Shown: one piece after another, positions 1-9,026 of the stretch
Numbering within the stretch: the stretch's first letter is position 1
Layout: every line of letters begins with the position of its first letter
Source of the DNA: Myxococcales bacterium
GTDB lineage: Bacteria > Myxococcota > Polyangia > Polyangiales > Polyangiaceae
Length of the DNA: 9,815 bases
Direction: 5' to 3'
Assembly (NCBI GenBank): GCA_003151595.1
Contig: PLXW01000082.1
Location: 1-9,815 of the forward strand
The notes under the pieces: model-generated
The model's input: the letters and a program-made list of their open reading frames with translations, nothing else
What the model was told of the DNA's origin: nothing
The model's database searches: none
Position numbers and translations under genes: made by a program

Positions 1-18
1 GGTCACACCAAGGCCTGC

Positions 19-53
19 GCTCGGCCAGGCCGAGCTTGCCGCCGAAGCGGCGG
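19..53. repeat. REP-like hairpin doublet, left copy
   Basis: Two adjacent hairpins precede the first four-helix-bundle gene. The first is GCTCGGC-CAG-GCCGAGC (19-35), a 7-bp perfect stem with a 3-nt loop. The second pairs CCGCC (39-43) with GGCGG (49-53), or alternatively GCCGC (38-42) with GCGGC (47-51). The same doublet lies at the matching place in the other arm with a different loop (TTC on that strand instead of CAG), so the stems are conserved while the loop is not. This resembles REP/BIME-type elements, but no REP-associated tyrosine transposase is present. Confidence 0.6.
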
Positions 54-136
54 TCGCTGCGCGAGCCTTGACCCGCCCTGCGCGCACGGGCTTCGGCATT
101 TTGTCTTCGAGAGAAGGCAGAAAGAAGAAGGGCGCG

Positions 137-457
137 ATGCTCAGGATTTACGATGTGATTCTCGAGGTGGTCGGCGAGCTGCGGCCGGTCATGGGGCAGA
201 TCGAACGGTGCGATGCGGACCTCGCGCGGCAGATGCGGAGGGCGGCGAGTAGCGTCGCATTGAACACCGCGGAAGGTATGTACAGCCAAGGCAAGAACCG
301 CGGCGCGCGCTACCACAACGCGCTCGGCTCGATGCGCGAGACACTCTCATGCATCGAAGTCGGCGTCGCACTCGGCTACCTGCCGCGCGTCGAAGAGGAC
401 CTCGTGGATCGAATCCGCAAGATCATCGGCACGCTCGTGCGGCTCATCGGTAAGTAA
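137..457 (+). CDS. Four-helix-bundle protein (S23/TIGR02436-like), copy A
   Basis: This gene encodes a 106-aa, all-helical soluble protein. The motif run DADLARQMRRAASSVALN at about residues 26-43, followed by EGMYS and GKNRGARYH, is typical of the four-helix-bundle family. That family includes proteins encoded in 23S rRNA intervening sequences and is related to the Avd accessory protein of diversity-generating retroelements. Its biochemical function is generally unknown. The ATG at 137 is chosen because it aligns with the paralogue's start (MLRIY versus MLKIY) and follows a purine-rich GAAGGG at 127-132. A TTG at 68 in the same frame would add residues encoded by the conserved flank and is rejected. 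The first 81 residues match the paralogue at 506-823 at about 85 percent by eye, but the last 25 diverge. No reverse transcriptase or rRNA lies nearby. The family call is solid; the role is unknown. Confidence 0.88.
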   Translation: MLRIYDVILEVVGELRPVMGQIERCDADLARQMRRAASSVALNTAEGMYSQGKNRGARYHNALGSMRETLSCIEVGVALGYLPRVEEDLVDRIRKIIGTLVRLIGK

Positions 458-462
458 CTGAA

Positions 463-500
463 CGTCGCGAGGCCGGGCACGCGCGCCCGGCCTCGCGACG
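463..500. terminator. Perfect 16-bp stem hairpin between convergent genes
   Basis: CGTCGCGAGGCCGGGC (463-478) is followed by a 6-nt loop and its exact reverse complement (485-500). It sits 5 bp after the TAA of the first four-helix-bundle gene and 5 bp beyond the TAG of the second, which reads from the other strand. It therefore suits a bidirectional terminator, although no long T-run follows on either side. It is also close to the axis of the 9-947 inverted repeat, so it could be the junction of the inverted duplication. Confidence 0.7.
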
Positions 501-505
501 AATCT

Positions 506-823
506 CTATGCCGTCAGCTTCGTGAGTGTCGCCATGATCCGATTGATTGAATTGAGCAGCGCCGAATCGATGCCTTCGACGTACCCGAGCGCCACGCCGA
601 CCTCGACGCACGAGAGCGTTTCCCGCATCGACCCCATGGCCGTGTGGTAGCGCGCCCCGCGGTTCTTCCCGCGGCTGTACATCCCTTCGCTGACATTCAA
701 AGCGACGCTGCTCGCCGCCCTCCGCATCTGCCGTGCGAGATCCGCATCCTTCCGCTCGATCTCCCCGATGACGCTCCGCAACTCGCCCACGACTTCCAGA
801 ATCACGCCGTAGATCTTCAACAT
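506..823 (-). CDS. Four-helix-bundle protein (S23/TIGR02436-like), copy B
   Basis: This is a 105-aa paralogue of the gene at 137-457, in inverted, convergent orientation. It keeps the family core (DADLARQMRRAASSVALN, EGMYSRGKNRGARYH, GSMRETLSC and EVGVALGY). About 12 of the first 81 residues differ from copy A, while the C-terminal 24 residues match only at about a quarter of positions. Start choice: the ATG at 823 is preceded on the minus strand by GGAG at 833-830, 6 nt away, and aligns with copy A. An in-frame ATG at 835 would add only MENA. Further upstream, the open frame runs into the conserved non-coding flank and is not believed. Function is unknown. The pair may form hetero-oligomers, which is speculation. 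Confidence 0.88.
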   Translation of the reverse strand: MLKIYGVILEVVGELRSVIGEIERKDADLARQMRRAASSVALNVSEGMYSRGKNRGARYHTAMGSMRETLSCVEVGVALGYVEGIDSALLNSINRIMATLTKLTA

Positions 824-829
824 CGCGTT

Positions 830-833
830 CTCC
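830..833 (-). promoter_or_regulatory. Ribosome binding site of four-helix-bundle copy B
   Basis: GGAG on the minus strand lies 6 nt before the ATG at 823. It supports that start over the ATG at 835, which the site itself abuts. Confidence 0.55.
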
Positions 834-847
834 ATTCCGTCTCCGCT

Positions 848-867
848 TCTCGAAGACAAAATGCCGA
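848..867. repeat. 20-bp block identical in both arms (right copy)
   Basis: These 20 bases are the exact reverse complement of 93-112. In both arms the block lies roughly 25 bp upstream of the four-helix-bundle start codon and contains the core GGCATTTTGTCTTCGAGA, which is AT-rich for this genome. It is better conserved than the coding DNA around it. That suggests a functional site such as a promoter, 5' UTR signal or recombinase site. No good -35/-10 pair could be assigned: the shared TTGAC is too far from any plausible -10. Confidence 0.6.
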
Positions 868-904
868 CGCCCGGGAGCGGAGGGCGCGTCAAGGCTGCGA
901 AGCA

Positions 905-937
905 CCGCCGCAGGCGGCAAGCTCGGCGAAGCCGAGC
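905..937. repeat. REP-like hairpin doublet, right copy
   Basis: CCGCC-GCA-GGCGG (905-917) and GCTCGGC-GAA-GCCGAGC (921-937) mirror the doublet at 19-53 in the opposite orientation. The long stem is base-for-base the same as in the left copy and only its loop differs. The second stem is also kept but with a shorter loop. Stem conservation with loop drift argues for a folded DNA or RNA function. Confidence 0.6.
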
Positions 938-982
938 GCAGGCCTTGATGCGCCCGAGCACCCGGGCAAACTCGTCAGTCCC

Positions 983-1010
983 GAGAGAGAGCCCTCAGTT
1001 GTTCTCTCTC
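983..1010 (-). terminator. Possible terminator of the alcohol dehydrogenase
   Basis: GAGAGAGA (983-990) and TCTCTCTC (1003-1010) form an 8-bp stem around a 12-nt loop, 22 bp beyond the stop of the alcohol dehydrogenase. The loop is rather large and no T-run follows on the minus strand, so this is only a candidate. The rest of 948-1032 shows nothing else. Confidence 0.35.
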
Positions 1011-1032
1011 CCCGGCGAACGCGAACACTCCC

Positions 1033-2046
1033 TCACCCCATCGTCAGCACCGCTCTGAACCTCACCCGATTCTCCATCACCTTCCCGAACGCCTGCTCCG
1101 CCTGCTCGAGCTTGAACAGCTCGACCCTCGGCCGCACGTTCGTCAGCGCGCTGAACGCCATCGCCTCTTCCGAGTCGATCGAGCTGCCGCTCGGCCACCC
1201 CGCGATCGACTTGCCGCTCAGCAGCGTCATCGCCTGAACCTTCAGCGGCTCGAACGGCGCGGCGACGATCAGCAGCTTGCCGCGTGGCTTCAGCCCGTCG
1301 ATCGTGCTGTTGATGGCGTCGGCGCTCGGCGCGGTCGCGAGCACCAGATCCGCGAAGCCCAGCCTCTTCAGCCCCTCCGACGCCGGTTCCTTCTGCGTGT
1401 CGATGTACTCGTGCGCGCCGAGCTGCCGCGCGAGCTCCTCCTTGTCCGAGCCTCGCGAGATCGCCACCGTGCGAAAGCCCATCTGCGCGGCGTACTGAAT
1501 CCCGAGGTGACCGAGGCCGCCGATCCCCTGGACCGCGACGGTGTCGCCCGGGCGCGCGCCGCTGTTGCGGAGCGCGTTGTACGTCGTCACGCCGGCGCAC
1601 ATGAGCGGCCCTGCGTCCGTGGCCGAGAGCTGCTCGGGAATGCGCGCGACCGCCTCGTGCGGAACGACGACGTACTCGGCGTACCCGCCGTCGAAGCTGA
1701 TGCCGGTGATCTTCGCCTTCTCGCAGTTGAGGAAGAGGCCGTGCCGGCAAGCGTTGCACACGAAGCAGTGCCCACCGTGCCACCCCACGCCGACGCGATC
1801 GCCCTTCTTCCATGGCGTCACGTGCGGTCCTACGGCATCGACGCGCCCCGCGATCTCGTGACCGGGGATGCGCGGCAGCGTCATTCCCGGGAACGCACCG
1901 GCGCGGACGAAGGCGTCGCTGTGACAGATGCCGCACGCCTCCACCTTGATGCGCACCTGCCCGACGTCCGGCTCAGGCACGTCGCGCTCGACGACCTCGA
2001 GCGGTGCGCCAGCCTTCGTCGCCTGAACGGCTTTCATCTTTGCCAT
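1033..2046 (-). CDS. Zinc-dependent alcohol dehydrogenase (MDR family)
   Basis: This 337-aa cytoplasmic enzyme is expected to interconvert alcohols and aldehydes using a nicotinamide cofactor. Its catalytic zinc ligands are visible as C41 (GICHSD), H63 (PGHE) and C150 (LMCAGVT). The structural zinc lobe is C94-x2-C97-x2-C100-x7-C108. The Rossmann motif GIGGLG starts at G174 and runs into HLGIQYAAQMG. After the second Rossmann strand there is SRGSDKEE (198-205) where NAD-specific enzymes carry an acidic residue, which hints at NADPH use as in YahK/CAD-like reductases (inference). Length and all ligands are normal, so the gene appears intact. The ATG at 2046 has GAGGAG 7 nt upstream; the ATG at 2037 is less well placed. 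It stands alone on its strand and is divergent from the AhpD-like gene. The substrate cannot be read from sequence. Confidence 0.93.
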   Translation of the reverse strand: MAKMKAVQATKAGAPLEVVERDVPEPDVGQVRIKVEACGICHSDAFVRAGAFPGMTLPRIPGHEIAGRVDAVGPHVTPWKKGDRVGVGWHGGHCFVCNACRHGLFLNCEKAKITGISFDGGYAEYVVVPHEAVARIPEQLSATDAGPLMCAGVTTYNALRNSGARPGDTVAVQGIGGLGHLGIQYAAQMGFRTVAISRGSDKEELARQLGAHEYIDTQKEPASEGLKRLGFADLVLATAPSADAINSTIDGLKPRGKLLIVAAPFEPLKVQAMTLLSGKSIAGWPSGSSIDSEEAMAFSALTNVRPRVELFKLEQAEQAFGKVMENRVRFRAVLTMG

Positions 2047-2053
2047 GGTCGTG

Positions 2054-2059
2054 CTCCTC
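2054..2059 (-). promoter_or_regulatory. Ribosome binding site of the alcohol dehydrogenase
   Basis: GAGGAG on the minus strand lies 7 nt before the ATG at 2046 and favours that start over the in-frame ATG at 2037. Confidence 0.7.
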
Positions 2060-2353
2060 GTCGTTCGCGCGGGTCCGCGGTGACTGCGCTTCGATGCCGC
2101 GCGCGACGATCGCGTCGCCGTGTTGTGCGCGATCGACGACCGACGCGAGCATGCTCGGCGTGCAACCTCCTTGGGCTTCGCGGAGGACGACCGCCATCAG
2201 GCGATCGGAGCGTCGTCCCCGCGCGATATGGCGGCGCCCCTGGGAGCACCGGACGACCGTGATCGTGCGATCTCACCCTCGACGCTCGCGTCGTCCAAAG
2301 CGGCGCTGCGGCAGACGACGATCGTGATCACGCGATCGGACGGTCGCCGATGC

Positions 2354-2460
2354 GCGATCCGTACGCGTAGGGATCGCGATACTCAAGCGTACCCATCGCG
2401 TAGTCCCAGCCCAGGGATCGCGATGGGGCGCCTGACACCTCGCGATCCCTACGCGTAGGG
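2354..2460. repeat. Degenerate copies of the ATCGCG/TACGCGTA repeat
   Basis: The words of the downstream 22-bp array occur here in scattered, partly inverted form. GCGATCC-GTACGCGTA-GGGATCGC (2354-2377) is an inverted repeat with one mismatched pair. CCCTACGCGTAGGG (2447-2460) is a perfect 14-bp palindrome flanked by CGCGAT. Further ATCGCG words sit near 2394 and 2417. This looks like an older or decayed part of the same array, or a set of separate protein-binding sites. Confidence 0.6.
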
Positions 2461-2500
2461 AAGGGGACATCCCACCCCAGGCATCGCGATCCCCCTGCGA

Positions 2501-2620
2501 GGGGATCGCGTTACCTACGCGTGGGGATCGCGTTACCTACGCGTACAGATCGCGTTCCCTACGCGTGGGGATCGCGTTACCTACGCGTACAGATCGCGAT
2601 CCCTACGCGTACAGATCGCG
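2501..2620. repeat. 22-bp tandem repeat array (about 5.5 units)
   Basis: Five full units begin at 2501, 2523, 2545, 2567 and 2589, and a 10-bp partial unit begins at 2611. Each unit is a 4-nt variable head, then GATCGCG or its in-register equivalent, two or three variable bases, and CCTACGCGT. The head is GGGG in units 1, 2 and 4 and ACAG in units 3, 5 and 6. Units 1, 2 and 4 are identical; units 3 and 5 differ by a few bases. Because 22 is not a multiple of three, the array cannot encode a regular peptide repeat. A period close to two helical turns would place any bound protein on one DNA face (inference). It is not a CRISPR array because there are no spacers. Confidence 0.9.
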
Positions 2621-2764
2621 AAGTGACCCTCGTGCCCACGCGCAGTGCACGCGTAGGTACTGCGATTTGCGCCCTCGCCTCCGCACACCGAGAAAATGGC
2701 TGCGGCGCGCCGGTACGGGCGCACAGTTCAGCACGCACGCCCGCCGCCGGCTACGCTCCCCTCC

Positions 2765-3382
2765 ATGACCCGCGACAACGAACGCCGCGCCCGCGCCGCC
2801 GAGTCCCCCATCGTCGGGAGCCTCCCCGACGTCCCGGGCATCGTCGTCGCCATGCGACTCGCGCCCGCCCTCGAAGTTCATCTGCGCGGGCTCGCCGACG
2901 CGCTGCTCGTGAACGACTTTCCCGGCGCGACGATCACGCGCGCCGAGCGCGAGCTGATCGCGACGGCGGTCTCCGCGCGCAACGACTGCTTCTACTGCAT
3001 GGACTCGCACGGCGCGTTCGCCTCCGAGCTCCTCGCGCGTGAGAACGCTCCCGCGATCACCAGCGTGGTCGACGGCGTGAAGAACGGCGGCGGCGCCCTG
3101 CGCGGCGCGAAGATGGACGCGCTCCTCGCGATCGCGCGCGCGGTCGGAGTGCGCTCGCGCGATCTCACGCGCGCCGACGTCGAGCGCGCCATCGCCGCCG
3201 GCGCGAGCGACGCGGACACGCAGCTCGCGGTGCTCATCGCCTCGGCCTTCTGCATGTACAACCGCATGGTCGACGGCCTCCGCGCGCGGACGCCTTCGAG
3301 CGAAGAGGCCTACCGCCCGCGCGCGAAAGAGATCGCCGACCACGGGTACAGCGACCCGCGGATCGTCTCGCTCCCACGCTGA
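2765..3382 (+). CDS. AhpD/carboxymuconolactone-decarboxylase-like peroxidase-related protein
   Basis: This 205-aa protein carries the complete AhpD redox motif: E63-x11-C75-x2-C78-x3-H82 (ERELIATAVSARNDCFYCMDSHG). Known members use the two cysteines and the Glu/His relay to reduce peroxides or to act as thiol-disulphide partners in the cytoplasm. A second family signature, AFCMYNRMVDGL, lies at 161-172. Length and layout fit the peroxidase-related subgroup rather than muconolactone decarboxylases, because both redox cysteines are present. The ATG at 2765 is chosen since the family core starts soon after it. An in-frame ATG at 2696 would add an Arg/Pro-rich leader unlike the family, and neither start has a strong ribosome binding site. 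It is divergent from the alcohol dehydrogenase, with the repeat array upstream. A role in peroxide or electrophile stress is plausible but unproven. Confidence 0.87.
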   Translation: MTRDNERRARAAESPIVGSLPDVPGIVVAMRLAPALEVHLRGLADALLVNDFPGATITRAERELIATAVSARNDCFYCMDSHGAFASELLARENAPAITSVVDGVKNGGGALRGAKMDALLAIARAVGVRSRDLTRADVERAIAAGASDADTQLAVLIASAFCMYNRMVDGLRARTPSSEEAYRPRAKEIADHGYSDPRIVSLPR

Positions 3383-6641: not shown

Positions 6642-9026
6642 TCAGTTGCCGCAGTAGTGCCCGCCGACGCCGCGGAGCCAGCCGCCGAACCCGTTGTACT
6701 GCGTGGGGCTGCAGAACGAGGCCGTCCCCGCGAGCACGGGCGCGACGCAGGTGAGCCCGTTGAACCACGTGGCGCAGTTCCCGGTGCGCGCCTGGTTCTG
6801 GCACTGGGTGGTCGCCGAGCCGGCGGGGCACTGCGTGCAGGTCTTCGCTTCGCAGTCCTCGAAGCACCCGACGTCGTTGTCGCAGCTCGCGTTCACGAAC
6901 GGCGAGGCGCACAGGAAGACGCCGGTCTGATCGGCGAACGGCACATCGAACGGCTCGAGGCACGACGCGCAGGCCGCGTTGATCTGCTTCTCGGTCGTGA
7001 AGAACGACGTGCACCCCGCCGAGGCGGCGCCCCCCGCGCACGCCGCTTGCGCTTCGGTGAGGTCTTGCGCGCTGCAGACCTTCTGCGTCTTCGGAGGCGT
7101 CACGGTCGTTCCGCTCGGGCAGCTGGGGTACGGCGCGGGGCAGGTGGTCTGCTGGTTCTTGCAGAGGCGCGGGGTCACGGCGACGTCGCACGTGGAGTTG
7201 CCGTTCGTGCAGTTCGCGCACGCGGCGCCCCCCGATCCGCACGCGGTGCCGAGGAAGCCCGCTTCGCACGTCCCCTGGGTGTCGCAGCAGCCGGCGCAGT
7301 TCGCGGGGCCGCACGACGGGACGCAGGCGTTGGCGGTGCAGACGTCCTTGCTCGACTGACAATCGGAGCAGCTCGCGCCCCCCTTGCCGCACGCCGCGTC
7401 GTCCGTCCCGCCCACGCACACGCCGCTCGCGTTGCAGCACCCGGCGCAGTTCGCGGGGCCGCAGGGGCGCGTGATGCACGTCCCCTTCGCGCACTCGTCG
7501 CCGTTCGTGGTGCAGTTCGAGCACGTGGCGCCGTTCGTTCCGCACGCGCCGTCTTGCGTGCCGACGGCGCAGACGCCGCTCACGCAACAGCCCGAGCAGG
7601 TGCCCGGTCCGCACGTCGGCTCGCAGAAGCCCGCCACGCACTGCGCGTCCGTCCCGCACGACACGCAGGCGACGCCGCCCGATCCGCACGTGCCGCCCGT
7701 CGTCCCCCCCTGGCAGTTGTTCTTGGCGTCGCAGCACCCCGAGCAGTTCGACGGGCCGCACGGCGCGTTGGCGACGCACGAGCCGCCGGTGCACTGCGTG
7801 TTGGTCGGGCACGGGACGCACGCTTTGCCGTTCGCGCCGCAGTCCGAGTCGTCGGTGCCGTTGAAGCAGCTGTTGCCGACGCAGCAGCCGTTGCAGTTGC
7901 TGGCGCTGCACGGGCCGCTCGTCTGGCAGACGTTCCCCACGCACGACCCGCCGTTGCTGCACGGCATGCACGCCTCGCCGCCGAAGCCGCACGCGCCGTC
8001 GTCGCCGCCGCCCAGGCACGTCGTCCCCTGGCAGCAGCCGGCGCAGTTCGACGGGTCGCACGTCGCCGCCGTGGTGCATCCTGCGTTCACGCACGCCTGC
8101 CCGCCCTTGCACGTCGTGCAGGTCTTCCCGCCGGCGCCGCAGTCGTTCGCGTTCGTGCCGGTCTGGCAGAGTCCGTTCAGGTCGCAGCAGCCGAAGCAGT
8201 TCTGGGGGCCGCACGCCGTCGTCGTGCACAGGCCGCCGCCGGCGAGCCCCGGGAGCGCGACGCATTCTTGCGACGCTCCCGTGCACGTGATGCACGCGTC
8301 CCCTTCGCTTCCGCACGCCGCGGCGAGCGTGCCGGAGGTGCACCCCGTCTTGCTGCAACAGCCGGCGCAGTTGCTCGCGTTGCATCCGGGCGCTTCGCAC
8401 GCGCCGCCGCCGAGCGGATCGGGCGCGCAGGCGAACCCCGAGGTGATGCAGTTCGAGCACTGCGCTCCGCCGGTTCCGCACGACGTGTCTTGCGCGCCGC
8501 CGACGCAGACGCCGTTCGAGCAGCAGCCGGCGCACTGCGGGCCGCAGGTGCTCGTGAGGCACGCTTGAAGCTTGGGATCGCACGCGAGCCCTTCGGCGCC
8601 GCAGTTCTCGCACGAGTTGCCGAAGTCGCCGCACGCGCCGCTGGCGTTGCCGGGCTGGCAGAGGCCGTTCACGTCGCAGCAGCCGTTCGCGCAGGAGAAT
8701 TGGTCGCAGCCGTTCGGCGGCGTGATCGAGACGCAGCCCCCTTGCGACGGGCTGCACACCTCCGACGGGCCTTGCTGCGTGCAGTCGTCACACGCGACTC
8801 CGCCGACGCCGCACTCCTGGAGCGTGCTCCCGCCTACGCAGACGCCGTTCGCGCAGCAGCCGGTGCACGTCACGCCGTTGCACGCGCCCCCTTCGGCGCC
8901 GCCGTCCTGGTCGATGACCAGCACGTCATCGAGGAGCGAAGAGCGGCCGCACCCCGCCAGCGTCGCCAGCGCGAGGGCGACGAGCACGGAAGCGAGGCGC
9001 GCGAGCCATCGAGCGCGAACGGTCAT
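6642..9026 (-). CDS. Large lipoprotein with eleven 10-cysteine repeats
   Basis: This 794-aa protein has a twin-Arg-flanked hydrophobic signal peptide ending in the lipobox LAG-C26, so it is an envelope or surface lipoprotein. After a short Asp/Gly linker come eleven tandem repeats at residues 49-628, starting at 49, 107, 161, 215, 272, 323, 373, 423, 472, 522 and 572. The usual unit is about 50 aa and carries ten cysteines in the order C-x4-C-x2-CC-x5-C-x8-C-x6-C-x2-C-x5-C-x4-C, with CGPxNCxGCC as the head. The C-terminal 166 residues are also Cys-rich but not repeated. No catalytic or named binding domain was recognised; adhesion, stalk formation or metal/thiol binding are guesses. The ATG at 9026 is preceded by AGGGG about 9 nt upstream. 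The gene lies 49 bp upstream of the SDR gene, without an obvious terminator, so read-through is possible. Confidence 0.87.
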   Translation of the reverse strand: MTVRARWLARLASVLVALALATLAGCGRSSLLDDVLVIDQDGGAEGGACNGVTCTGCCANGVCVGGSTLQECGVGGVACDDCTQQGPSEVCSPSQGGCVSITPPNGCDQFSCANGCCDVNGLCQPGNASGACGDFGNSCENCGAEGLACDPKLQACLTSTCGPQCAGCCSNGVCVGGAQDTSCGTGGAQCSNCITSGFACAPDPLGGGACEAPGCNASNCAGCCSKTGCTSGTLAAACGSEGDACITCTGASQECVALPGLAGGGLCTTTACGPQNCFGCCDLNGLCQTGTNANDCGAGGKTCTTCKGGQACVNAGCTTAATCDPSNCAGCCQGTTCLGGGDDGACGFGGEACMPCSNGGSCVGNVCQTSGPCSASNCNGCCVGNSCFNGTDDSDCGANGKACVPCPTNTQCTGGSCVANAPCGPSNCSGCCDAKNNCQGGTTGGTCGSGGVACVSCGTDAQCVAGFCEPTCGPGTCSGCCVSGVCAVGTQDGACGTNGATCSNCTTNGDECAKGTCITRPCGPANCAGCCNASGVCVGGTDDAACGKGGASCSDCQSSKDVCTANACVPSCGPANCAGCCDTQGTCEAGFLGTACGSGGAACANCTNGNSTCDVAVTPRLCKNQQTTCPAPYPSCPSGTTVTPPKTQKVCSAQDLTEAQAACAGGAASAGCTSFFTTEKQINAACASCLEPFDVPFADQTGVFLCASPFVNASCDNDVGCFEDCEAKTCTQCPAGSATTQCQNQARTGNCATWFNGLTCVAPVLAGTASFCSPTQYNGFGGWLRGVGGHYCGN
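7143..8882 (-). repeat. Coding tandem repeats of the Cys-rich lipoprotein
   Basis: Eleven in-frame units of 147-174 bp encode the ten-cysteine repeat. Units 6-10 (about 49-50 aa) are the most regular. Units 1-4 and the last unit carry insertions mainly before the final cysteine. The repeats differ too much in sequence to be a recent expansion. The cysteine framework is what is conserved, which points to selection on the disulphide fold. Confidence 0.85.

What the first reader, a model, noticed from the sequence alone, without database searches (positions are those of the whole stretch)
9..947. Inverted pair of four-helix-bundle cassettes with shared non-coding flanks
Two copies of gene plus upstream flank are arranged head-to-head in a near-palindromic block of about 940 bp. 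The flanking blocks (17, 15 and 20 bp identical) are better conserved than synonymous sites in the genes. The unit boundaries at 9 and 947 are sharp. This looks like a dispersed cassette family without its own transposase, perhaps moved in trans. S23-type four-helix-bundle proteins are already linked to 23S rRNA intervening sequences and, through Avd, to diversity-generating retroelements, so a free-standing cassette is worth attention.
Basis: partly seen in the sequence, partly recalled or inferred. Interest (0 to 1): 0.72.

Follow-up and report, generated by a model that had tools for sequence, protein, structure and literature searches.

The report
Hairpin-headed mobile four-helix-bundle gene cassettes
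Two facing copies of a small gene, each headed by a hairpin-forming sequence, belong to a family that is scattered through the genomes of some myxobacteria and is present at a site in one species but missing from the same site in relatives, so it looks like an undescribed kind of small mobile cassette.

Summary
The inverted pair is real: two PF05635/TIGR02436 four-helix-bundle (S23) genes face each other (convergent, not head-to-head), each behind the same leader. The leader is an imperfect hairpin: P1-TGCTCG-P2-variable apex-P2'-CT(G/C)CGC-P1'. Across myxobacterial relatives the stems change letters but stay paired (24 leaders: 101 two-sided changes against 32 in shuffles, 0 of 500), while the internal-loop letters barely vary. 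Almost no change is one-sided G-T, so the constraint looks like DNA rather than an mRNA leader. The family is multi-copy (3-20 matches in each of 11 host genomes), usually bordered upstream by period-6 arrays (85 of 115 copies, control 4 of 113), and often paired convergently. The pair in Sorangium So ce26 is a ~1.5 kb insertion missing from the same site in four congeners; two further cassettes have empty sites in relatives. No recombinase lies in the window's cassette. Y1 (RAYT) genes were not found in 4 of 7 host genomes. The hairpin also sits in one IS110 subgroup but not in its more distant relatives. Best reading: a non-autonomous mobile cassette whose structured hairpin is recognised by the S23 protein and/or a trans-acting enzyme. 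Mobility is well supported; mechanism is inferred.

The parts
9..95 (+). left leader hairpin, 5' arm incomplete at the window start
   Evidence: R1 20 bits at 11-93; about 7 nt missing against the right leader
137..457 (+). left four-helix-bundle (S23) gene, 106 aa
   Evidence: PF05635 E 2.6e-11; TIGR02436 50.5 bits, cut-off 24
463..500 (.). 16-bp perfect palindrome (arms 463-478, 485-500) between the convergent stops; terminator-like by position only
   Evidence: read directly from the sequence
506..835 (-). right four-helix-bundle (S23) gene, 105 or 109 aa depending on the ATG used (823 or 835)
   Evidence: PF05635 E 2.4e-11; TIGR02436 47.4 bits; P0001, 109 aa
867..969 (-). right leader hairpin, complete: P1 GCCCGGG/CCCGGGC, loops TGCTCG and CTCCGCT, P2 GGCGC.TCAAGG/CCTTGA.GCGCC
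   Evidence: R1 67.6 bits, E 4.3e-12 (this leader is one of the 24 the model was built from); covariation
970..1000 (-). further upstream leader segment (CGAGTTTGCC and CTCTCTCGGGA-like motifs) resembling that of G001 copies
   Evidence: comparison by eye; end of the element not defined
1033..2046 (-). neighbouring zinc-type alcohol dehydrogenase; the hairpin ends 63 nt from its stop codon
   Evidence: PF08240, PF00107

Best explanation
The block is a convergent pair of units of a small non-autonomous mobile cassette family of Polyangia-type myxobacteria. A unit is a long imperfect hairpin, then (about 30-80 nt on) a gene for a basic ~105-aa S23/four-helix-bundle protein, then often a palindrome; in many relatives period-6 arrays mark the outer ends. 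SHOWN: shared anatomy, strong stem covariation with nearly invariant internal-loop letters, multi-copy dispersal, presence/absence at orthologous sites in relatives, dN/dS below 0.5 in 16 of 19 genomes. INFERRED: the hairpin acts as folded DNA and is recognised by shape plus its unpaired loop; the S23 protein binds it; an enzyme encoded elsewhere does the cutting and joining.
For: 281 relatives at E<=1e-3, the 120 listed 66-100% identical. 24 loci in genome contigs. 3-20 matches (fragments included) in 11 of 11 host genomes; 23 of 377 Myxococcota genomes at E<=1e-20, five of them already known. Hairpin in 108 of 138 leaders. Covariation: 891 of 931 cells paired against a shuffle maximum of 674; 94.3% paired against 68.7%, 101 two-sided changes against 31.9, only 2 one-sided. 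G.T 21 and A.C 32 of 1425 cells. Arrays upstream 85 of 115, control 4 of 113, background windows 8 of 725. Empty sites: So ce26 pair missing from four of five congeners, the fifth has about 3.2 kb of other DNA there; L087; L243. Median dN/dS 0.05-0.78 in 19 genomes, below 0.5 in 16.
Against: No target duplication or circular form was seen, and no enzyme is identified. 30 of 138 leaders are not in the fitting set (truncated, array-replaced, divergent, or dropped by hand). dN/dS is 0.63-0.78 in G008, G009 and G212. Seven of 20 checked hairpins show no S23-like ORF downstream, so hairpin and gene are not an obligate pair. Hexamer arrays also occur away from cassettes in Polyangium. The window itself has no period-6 array by the same script. 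G.T against A.C does not differ significantly (p 0.17): the data argue against a wobble excess but do not prove a strand, and no adequate RNA control was obtained. Flanks of two other loci (L090, L093) gave no simple empty site.
Confidence: 0.6

Rival explanations
1. The hairpin is a structured mRNA leader bound by the S23 protein (autoregulation or an RNP), as Avd works with DGR RNA; dispersal is by ordinary recombination.
For: It lies just before the ATG in the fitting copies; proteins are basic, median pI 9.35 of 120; the fold resembles Avd, also in the DGR RNP 8ub7.
Against: Only 2 one-sided changes against 101 two-sided; G.T 21 and A.C 32 of 1425 cells; hairpins without the gene; no Rfam family.
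Confidence: 0.3
2. Cassettes are mobilised in trans by IS110-family recombinases, the hairpin being related to a bridge-RNA loop.
For: R1 hairpin in the left non-coding end of three IS110 copies, 61.5-66.2 bits; stem with a two-sided internal loop as in bridge RNAs (PMC11208160 passages); the three further genomes with an IS relative at 49-56% identity all carry S23 cassettes.
Against: Those three relatives lack the hairpin, though in two of them a hairpin-like segment next to the ATG is kept by eye (the third was not printed); 11 relatives at 27-29% lack it too; loop letters are near constant instead of varying with targets; 19 of 23 cassette genomes have no such IS at 1e-60; no wobble excess.
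Confidence: 0.1
3. An ordinary expanded gene family with a REP-like palindrome near it; presence/absence reflects deletion or horizontal exchange of intergenic DNA, not transposition.
For: No target duplication; L093 and L090 flanks are rearranged rather than simply empty.
Against: Missing from several relatives at the Sorangium site with the flank matches within 16 nt of each other; flanks of copies mostly unlike; arrays not seen at the two empty sites read.
Confidence: 0.15
4. Retro-mobilisation in trans by a host reverse transcriptase, with S23 as an Avd-like helper and the hexamer arrays as extension scars.
For: Fold similarity to Avd; variable arrays at ends; no target duplication.
Against: No reverse transcriptase was sought; hairpin shows no RNA wobble signature.
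Confidence: 0.04

Closest known systems
23S rRNA intervening sequences (IVS) with an S23 ORF, e.g. Coxiella burnetii
   Same: Selfish, sporadic element with an S23 ORF and stem-forming repeats (PMC4990558, abstract and passages)
   Different: Here free-standing between protein genes, several copies per genome, hairpin upstream of the gene rather than enclosing it, often convergent pairs
Avd of diversity-generating retroelements
   Same: Similar fold (4dwl, 8ub7); PF05635 resembles Avd (PMC10053308 passages)
   Different: No reverse transcriptase among the window proteins scanned; template and variable repeats were not sought
REP/RAYT palindromes and MITEs
   Same: Dispersed palindromes between genes, in part without a dedicated transposase (PMC3733652 abstract)
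   Different: Longer, carries a gene, stems covary freely, no Y1 transposase found in 4 of 7 genomes
Integron attC sites (recalled)
   Same: Two stems, unpaired spacers, variable apex, recognition by shape
   Different: Stem letters next to the spacer vary freely here, whereas attC R boxes are fixed (recalled); hairpin precedes the gene; inverted pairs
IS110 bridge RNA loops
   Same: Hairpin with a two-sided internal loop, found in one IS110 subgroup
   Different: Absent from more distant relatives of that IS; loop letters near constant

Membership tests
PF05635/TIGR02436 four-helix-bundle (S23) proteins | profile score above curated cut-off | tested here: met
   44.1/44.2 bits (cut-off 33.8) and 50.5/47.4 bits (cut-off 24)
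PF05635/TIGR02436 four-helix-bundle (S23) proteins | S23 fold | tested here: met
   model pLDDT 96; 2gsc and 2rld are the top Foldseek hits, best E 1.3e-3, TM 0.76; 2gsc also by sequence profile, E 6.9e-8
23S rRNA IVS | inserted in a 23S rRNA helix | tested here: not met
   window neighbours are protein genes; no Rfam family at gathering in 20 sources including the window
REP/RAYT | host Y1 (RAYT) transposase | tested here: not met
   PF01797 not found in 4 of 7 host genomes with cassettes; the window's own host not testable
Integron gene cassette | attC with conserved R boxes | tested here: not met
   P1 letters differ between genomes; R-box consensus recalled
Integron gene cassette | integron integrase | not tested
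   host genomes were not searched for IntI
IS110 | DEDD recombinase gene in the element | tested here: not met
   absent from the window's cassette
IS110 | hairpin shared with the IS non-coding end | tested here: inconclusive
   present in 3 copies (self or 68% identical), absent from 3 at 49-56% and 11 at 27-29%
Mobile element | presence/absence at orthologous sites | tested here: met
   in relatives; not testable for the window itself
DGR | reverse transcriptase with TR/VR | tested here: not met
   no reverse transcriptase among the window proteins scanned; TR/VR not sought; host genome not held

The most novel reading that the evidence does not exclude
A class of mobile gene cassette addressed by a DNA hairpin: the element is recognised by the shape of an extruded hairpin with free stems and fixed unpaired loop letters, and the S23 protein it encodes is the hairpin-binding factor. 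This would give the PF05635 family a function and suggest that S23-bearing rRNA IVS are one offshoot of such hairpin-protein elements.
Probability: 0.3. Interest if true: 0.88.

Novelty: new variant of a known kind. Interest (0 to 1): 0.72.

Why it matters
S23/PF05635 proteins have long been known from rRNA intervening sequences, whose functionality and origin were still called unclear in 2016 (PMC4990558, passages). A dispersed, free-standing form with a covarying hairpin and clean empty sites makes two questions testable: does S23 bind the hairpin, as DNA or RNA, and which enzyme moves the cassette? The lack of wobble changes may also serve as a simple sequence criterion for separating DNA hairpins from RNA leaders.

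Tried and rejected
RAYT/REP mobilisation: Y1 family not found in 4 of 7 host genomes. IS110 bridge RNA: at first attractive, weakened when more distant relatives of the IS lacked the hairpin. Known RNA family: none in Rfam at gathering; the permissive scan of window 1-3000 gave only four microRNA-family matches far below their cut-offs. Known defence protein: none in PADLOC. Phage and plasmid copies: no blastn match; viral contigs: nine candidate stretches, none confirmed. A telomere-like polarity of the hexamer arrays was considered and dropped because both polarities occur. tRNA stems as a wobble control were too few (8 ARAGORN calls, some doubtful) and a tRNA family search added nothing. 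A pattern search for one leader arm exceeded its reversed control mainly in Polyangium and was not used further. A second flank search (L232) was run but not analysed for an empty site. The single-protein genome scan found nothing; the alignment scan did. The window dN/dS was one codon out of frame and was redone.

Novelty searches. None of the listed titles or abstract starts describes such cassettes; only the open-licence PMC library was searched. Papers: PMC4990558, PMC10053308, PMC10910872 (one figure-legend passage) and PMC11208160 seen as passages, PMC3733652 as abstract and outline; none read whole.

Full report
OBSERVATION. The window's first kilobase holds two four-helix-bundle genes in convergent orientation (137-457 + and 506-835 -), 71% identical in protein and 73% in DNA, with a 16-bp palindrome between their stops and a shared leader at each outer end. 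The inverted repeat is found by direct search. Synonymous sites are 47% identical, the best leader block 44 of 49, so the leader is under separate constraint. The orientation is tail-to-tail, not head-to-head, and the right leader continues past 947 to at least 969. The left leader is incomplete at the window start.

FAMILY AND DISPERSAL. A protein search gave 281 relatives at E<=1e-3, the best 120 of which are listed, 66-100% identical. A scan of genome contigs with a 42-member alignment gave 24 loci, in records labelled Polyangium, Sorangium, Myxococcales, Polyangia, Deltaproteobacteria or (one) just 'bacterium'. All 11 host genomes searched are multi-copy (3-20 matches, fragments and some distant S23 included). 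In a sample of 377 Myxococcota genomes 23 have a match at E<=1e-20, five of which I already knew. Viral contigs, phages and plasmids gave none. In the 139 loci analysed (164 copies or fragments), neighbouring S23 genes less than 1.2 kb apart are convergent 15 times (the window included), divergent twice and tandem four times, the last all in one array. In the two Polyangium loci whose ORFs I read beyond the S23 gene (L088, L069) a sigma-factor-like gene follows (PF08281 and PF04542, tested on L069 only); four convergent pairs, in G005, G006 and G353, are about 850 nt apart.

THE HAIRPIN. The leaders share P1 (7 bp), TGCTCG, P2 (12 bp, usually ending TCAAGG), a variable apex, P2', CT(G/C)CGC(G/T) and P1', ending in fitting copies about 30-80 nt before the ATG. 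Of 138 leaders examined 108 were kept as fitting; the rest are cut by contig ends, replaced by arrays, divergent, or were dropped by hand. Of 75 unique arms, 70 have TGCTCG exactly. In 49 unique leaders 891 of 931 pair cells are standard pairs, against a shuffle mean of 651 and maximum of 674, and 326-430 when slid. The leaders in that count were picked by a pairing score, which raises the observed figure. In a 24-leader alignment 94.3% of cells pair (shuffled 68.7%), 101 cells carry two-sided changes (shuffled 31.9, 0 of 500) and only 2 one-sided. Over 75 unique arms there are 21 G.T against 32 A.C/C.A cells in 1425; the difference is not significant (p 0.17), but an RNA-level constraint should give a marked G.T excess (general knowledge; my own tRNA control was too small), and the register search itself counted G.T as paired. 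Hence I favour DNA-level constraint or palindrome-correcting mutation over an mRNA leader.

HAIRPIN AND GENE CAN PART. A covariance model (R1) gave 73 matches in 8 genomes. The 20 not next to an S23 match or 61 were all fetched. By inspection of about 700 nt downstream: 4 precede an intact, more divergent S23 gene (2 of them tested, both TIGR02436), 7 precede truncated or split S23 remnants (two of these, L290 and L293, weak), 2 end at contig ends, and 7 show no S23-like ORF. One of those seven lies in the left non-coding end of an IS110-family element; two copies of a 68%-identical IS in a Sorangium genome carry it too, inside the 2.18-kb stretch the two copies share. Relatives of that IS at 49-56% identity lack the hairpin, as do eleven at 27-29%. 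The simplest reading is that a hairpin unit of roughly 160-180 nt, also found alone in Sorangium, was captured by that IS.

ARRAYS. Period-6 arrays of at least 40 nt lie within -600 to -60 of the gene in 85 of 115 copies with enough upstream sequence, against 4 of 113 in a control window further upstream and 8 of 725 background windows. In several single-gene elements the far-end array is the inverted unit, in several convergent pairs it is in direct orientation (read from the table, not tested statistically). Similar arrays also occur without cassettes in Polyangium. The window has none.

EMPTY SITES. Sorangium So ce26: flanks of the pair match five congeners at 87-94%; in four the two flank matches lie from 3 nt overlapping to 16 nt apart, so about 1.5 kb with the pair and both arrays is extra in So ce26; the fifth has about 3.2 kb of DNA there that I did not examine. 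Polyangium fumosum L087: about 1.1 kb between flanks against 15 nt in one relative, with 215 nt and 1.8 kb of other DNA in two more. L243 (G353, unnamed, Polyangium-like by flank identity): 1.9 kb including the cassette against 11 nt in one relative and 167 nt in another; in the other three relatives the left flank is not adjacent, and not all of that 1.9 kb need be cassette. Two further G006 loci gave no simple empty site. At L087 and L243 the element's array appears to start directly at a neighbour's stop codon; in the window 63 nt lie between the hairpin and the dehydrogenase stop. No target duplication is evident.

SELECTION AND FOLD. Median dN/dS among copies within a genome is below 0.5 in 16 of 19 genomes, 0.13-0.24 in G002, G005, G006 and G353, and 0.63-0.78 in G008, G009 and G212. 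The AlphaFold model (pLDDT 96) matches S23 structures 2gsc and 2rld first (best E 1.3e-3), and Avd (4dwl, and the DGR RNP 8ub7) more weakly. The proteins are basic (median pI 9.35 of 120).

MECHANISM. Shown: a dispersed family, structure-level constraint on the hairpin, insertion polymorphism in relatives. Inferred: recognition of a folded DNA hairpin; binding by the S23 protein; an enzyme acting in trans. RAYTs are unlikely; IS110 remains possible but is not favoured; reverse transcription was not tested.

NOVELTY. I found no description in the searches listed under Tried and rejected. The closest is the S23-bearing 23S rRNA IVS, called selfish and of unclear origin in PMC4990558 (abstract and passages). 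The cassettes fail the defining features that were tested for IVS, REP/RAYT, attC and IS110, but 'non-autonomous mobile element' is a known kind, so I rate them a new variant.

Noticed in passing
window 2341-2670: Array of 22-nt imperfect repeats (ATCGCGTTACCTACGCGTGGGG-like) between the dehydrogenase and the next gene.
   Followed up: no
window 6642-9026 (-): 794-aa cysteine-rich repetitive protein without a Pfam match.
   Followed up: no
L069, L070, L071 (and the right half only in L097): S23 genes split near residue 50, with 5-9 kb of other DNA between the halves and near-identical junctions in different copies, as if a second element uses a fixed site in the gene.
   Followed up: partly
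L288/L306, L307, L311: IS110-family insertion sequences whose left non-coding end contains the cassette hairpin.
   Followed up: partly
L234 (G118:C2:1854800-1861700): Tandem array of five S23 genes (one truncated match), each with its own hairpin leader.
   Followed up: no
L184/L187 (G013): At the Sorangium site where So ce26 has the pair, another species has about 3.2 kb of other DNA, not examined: a possible insertion hot spot.
   Followed up: no
L120-L131 (G009): A second palindrome, AGGCGCGCGCGTCAGCGAGCGCCT, sits between the hexamer array and the hairpin in many G009 copies.
   Followed up: no
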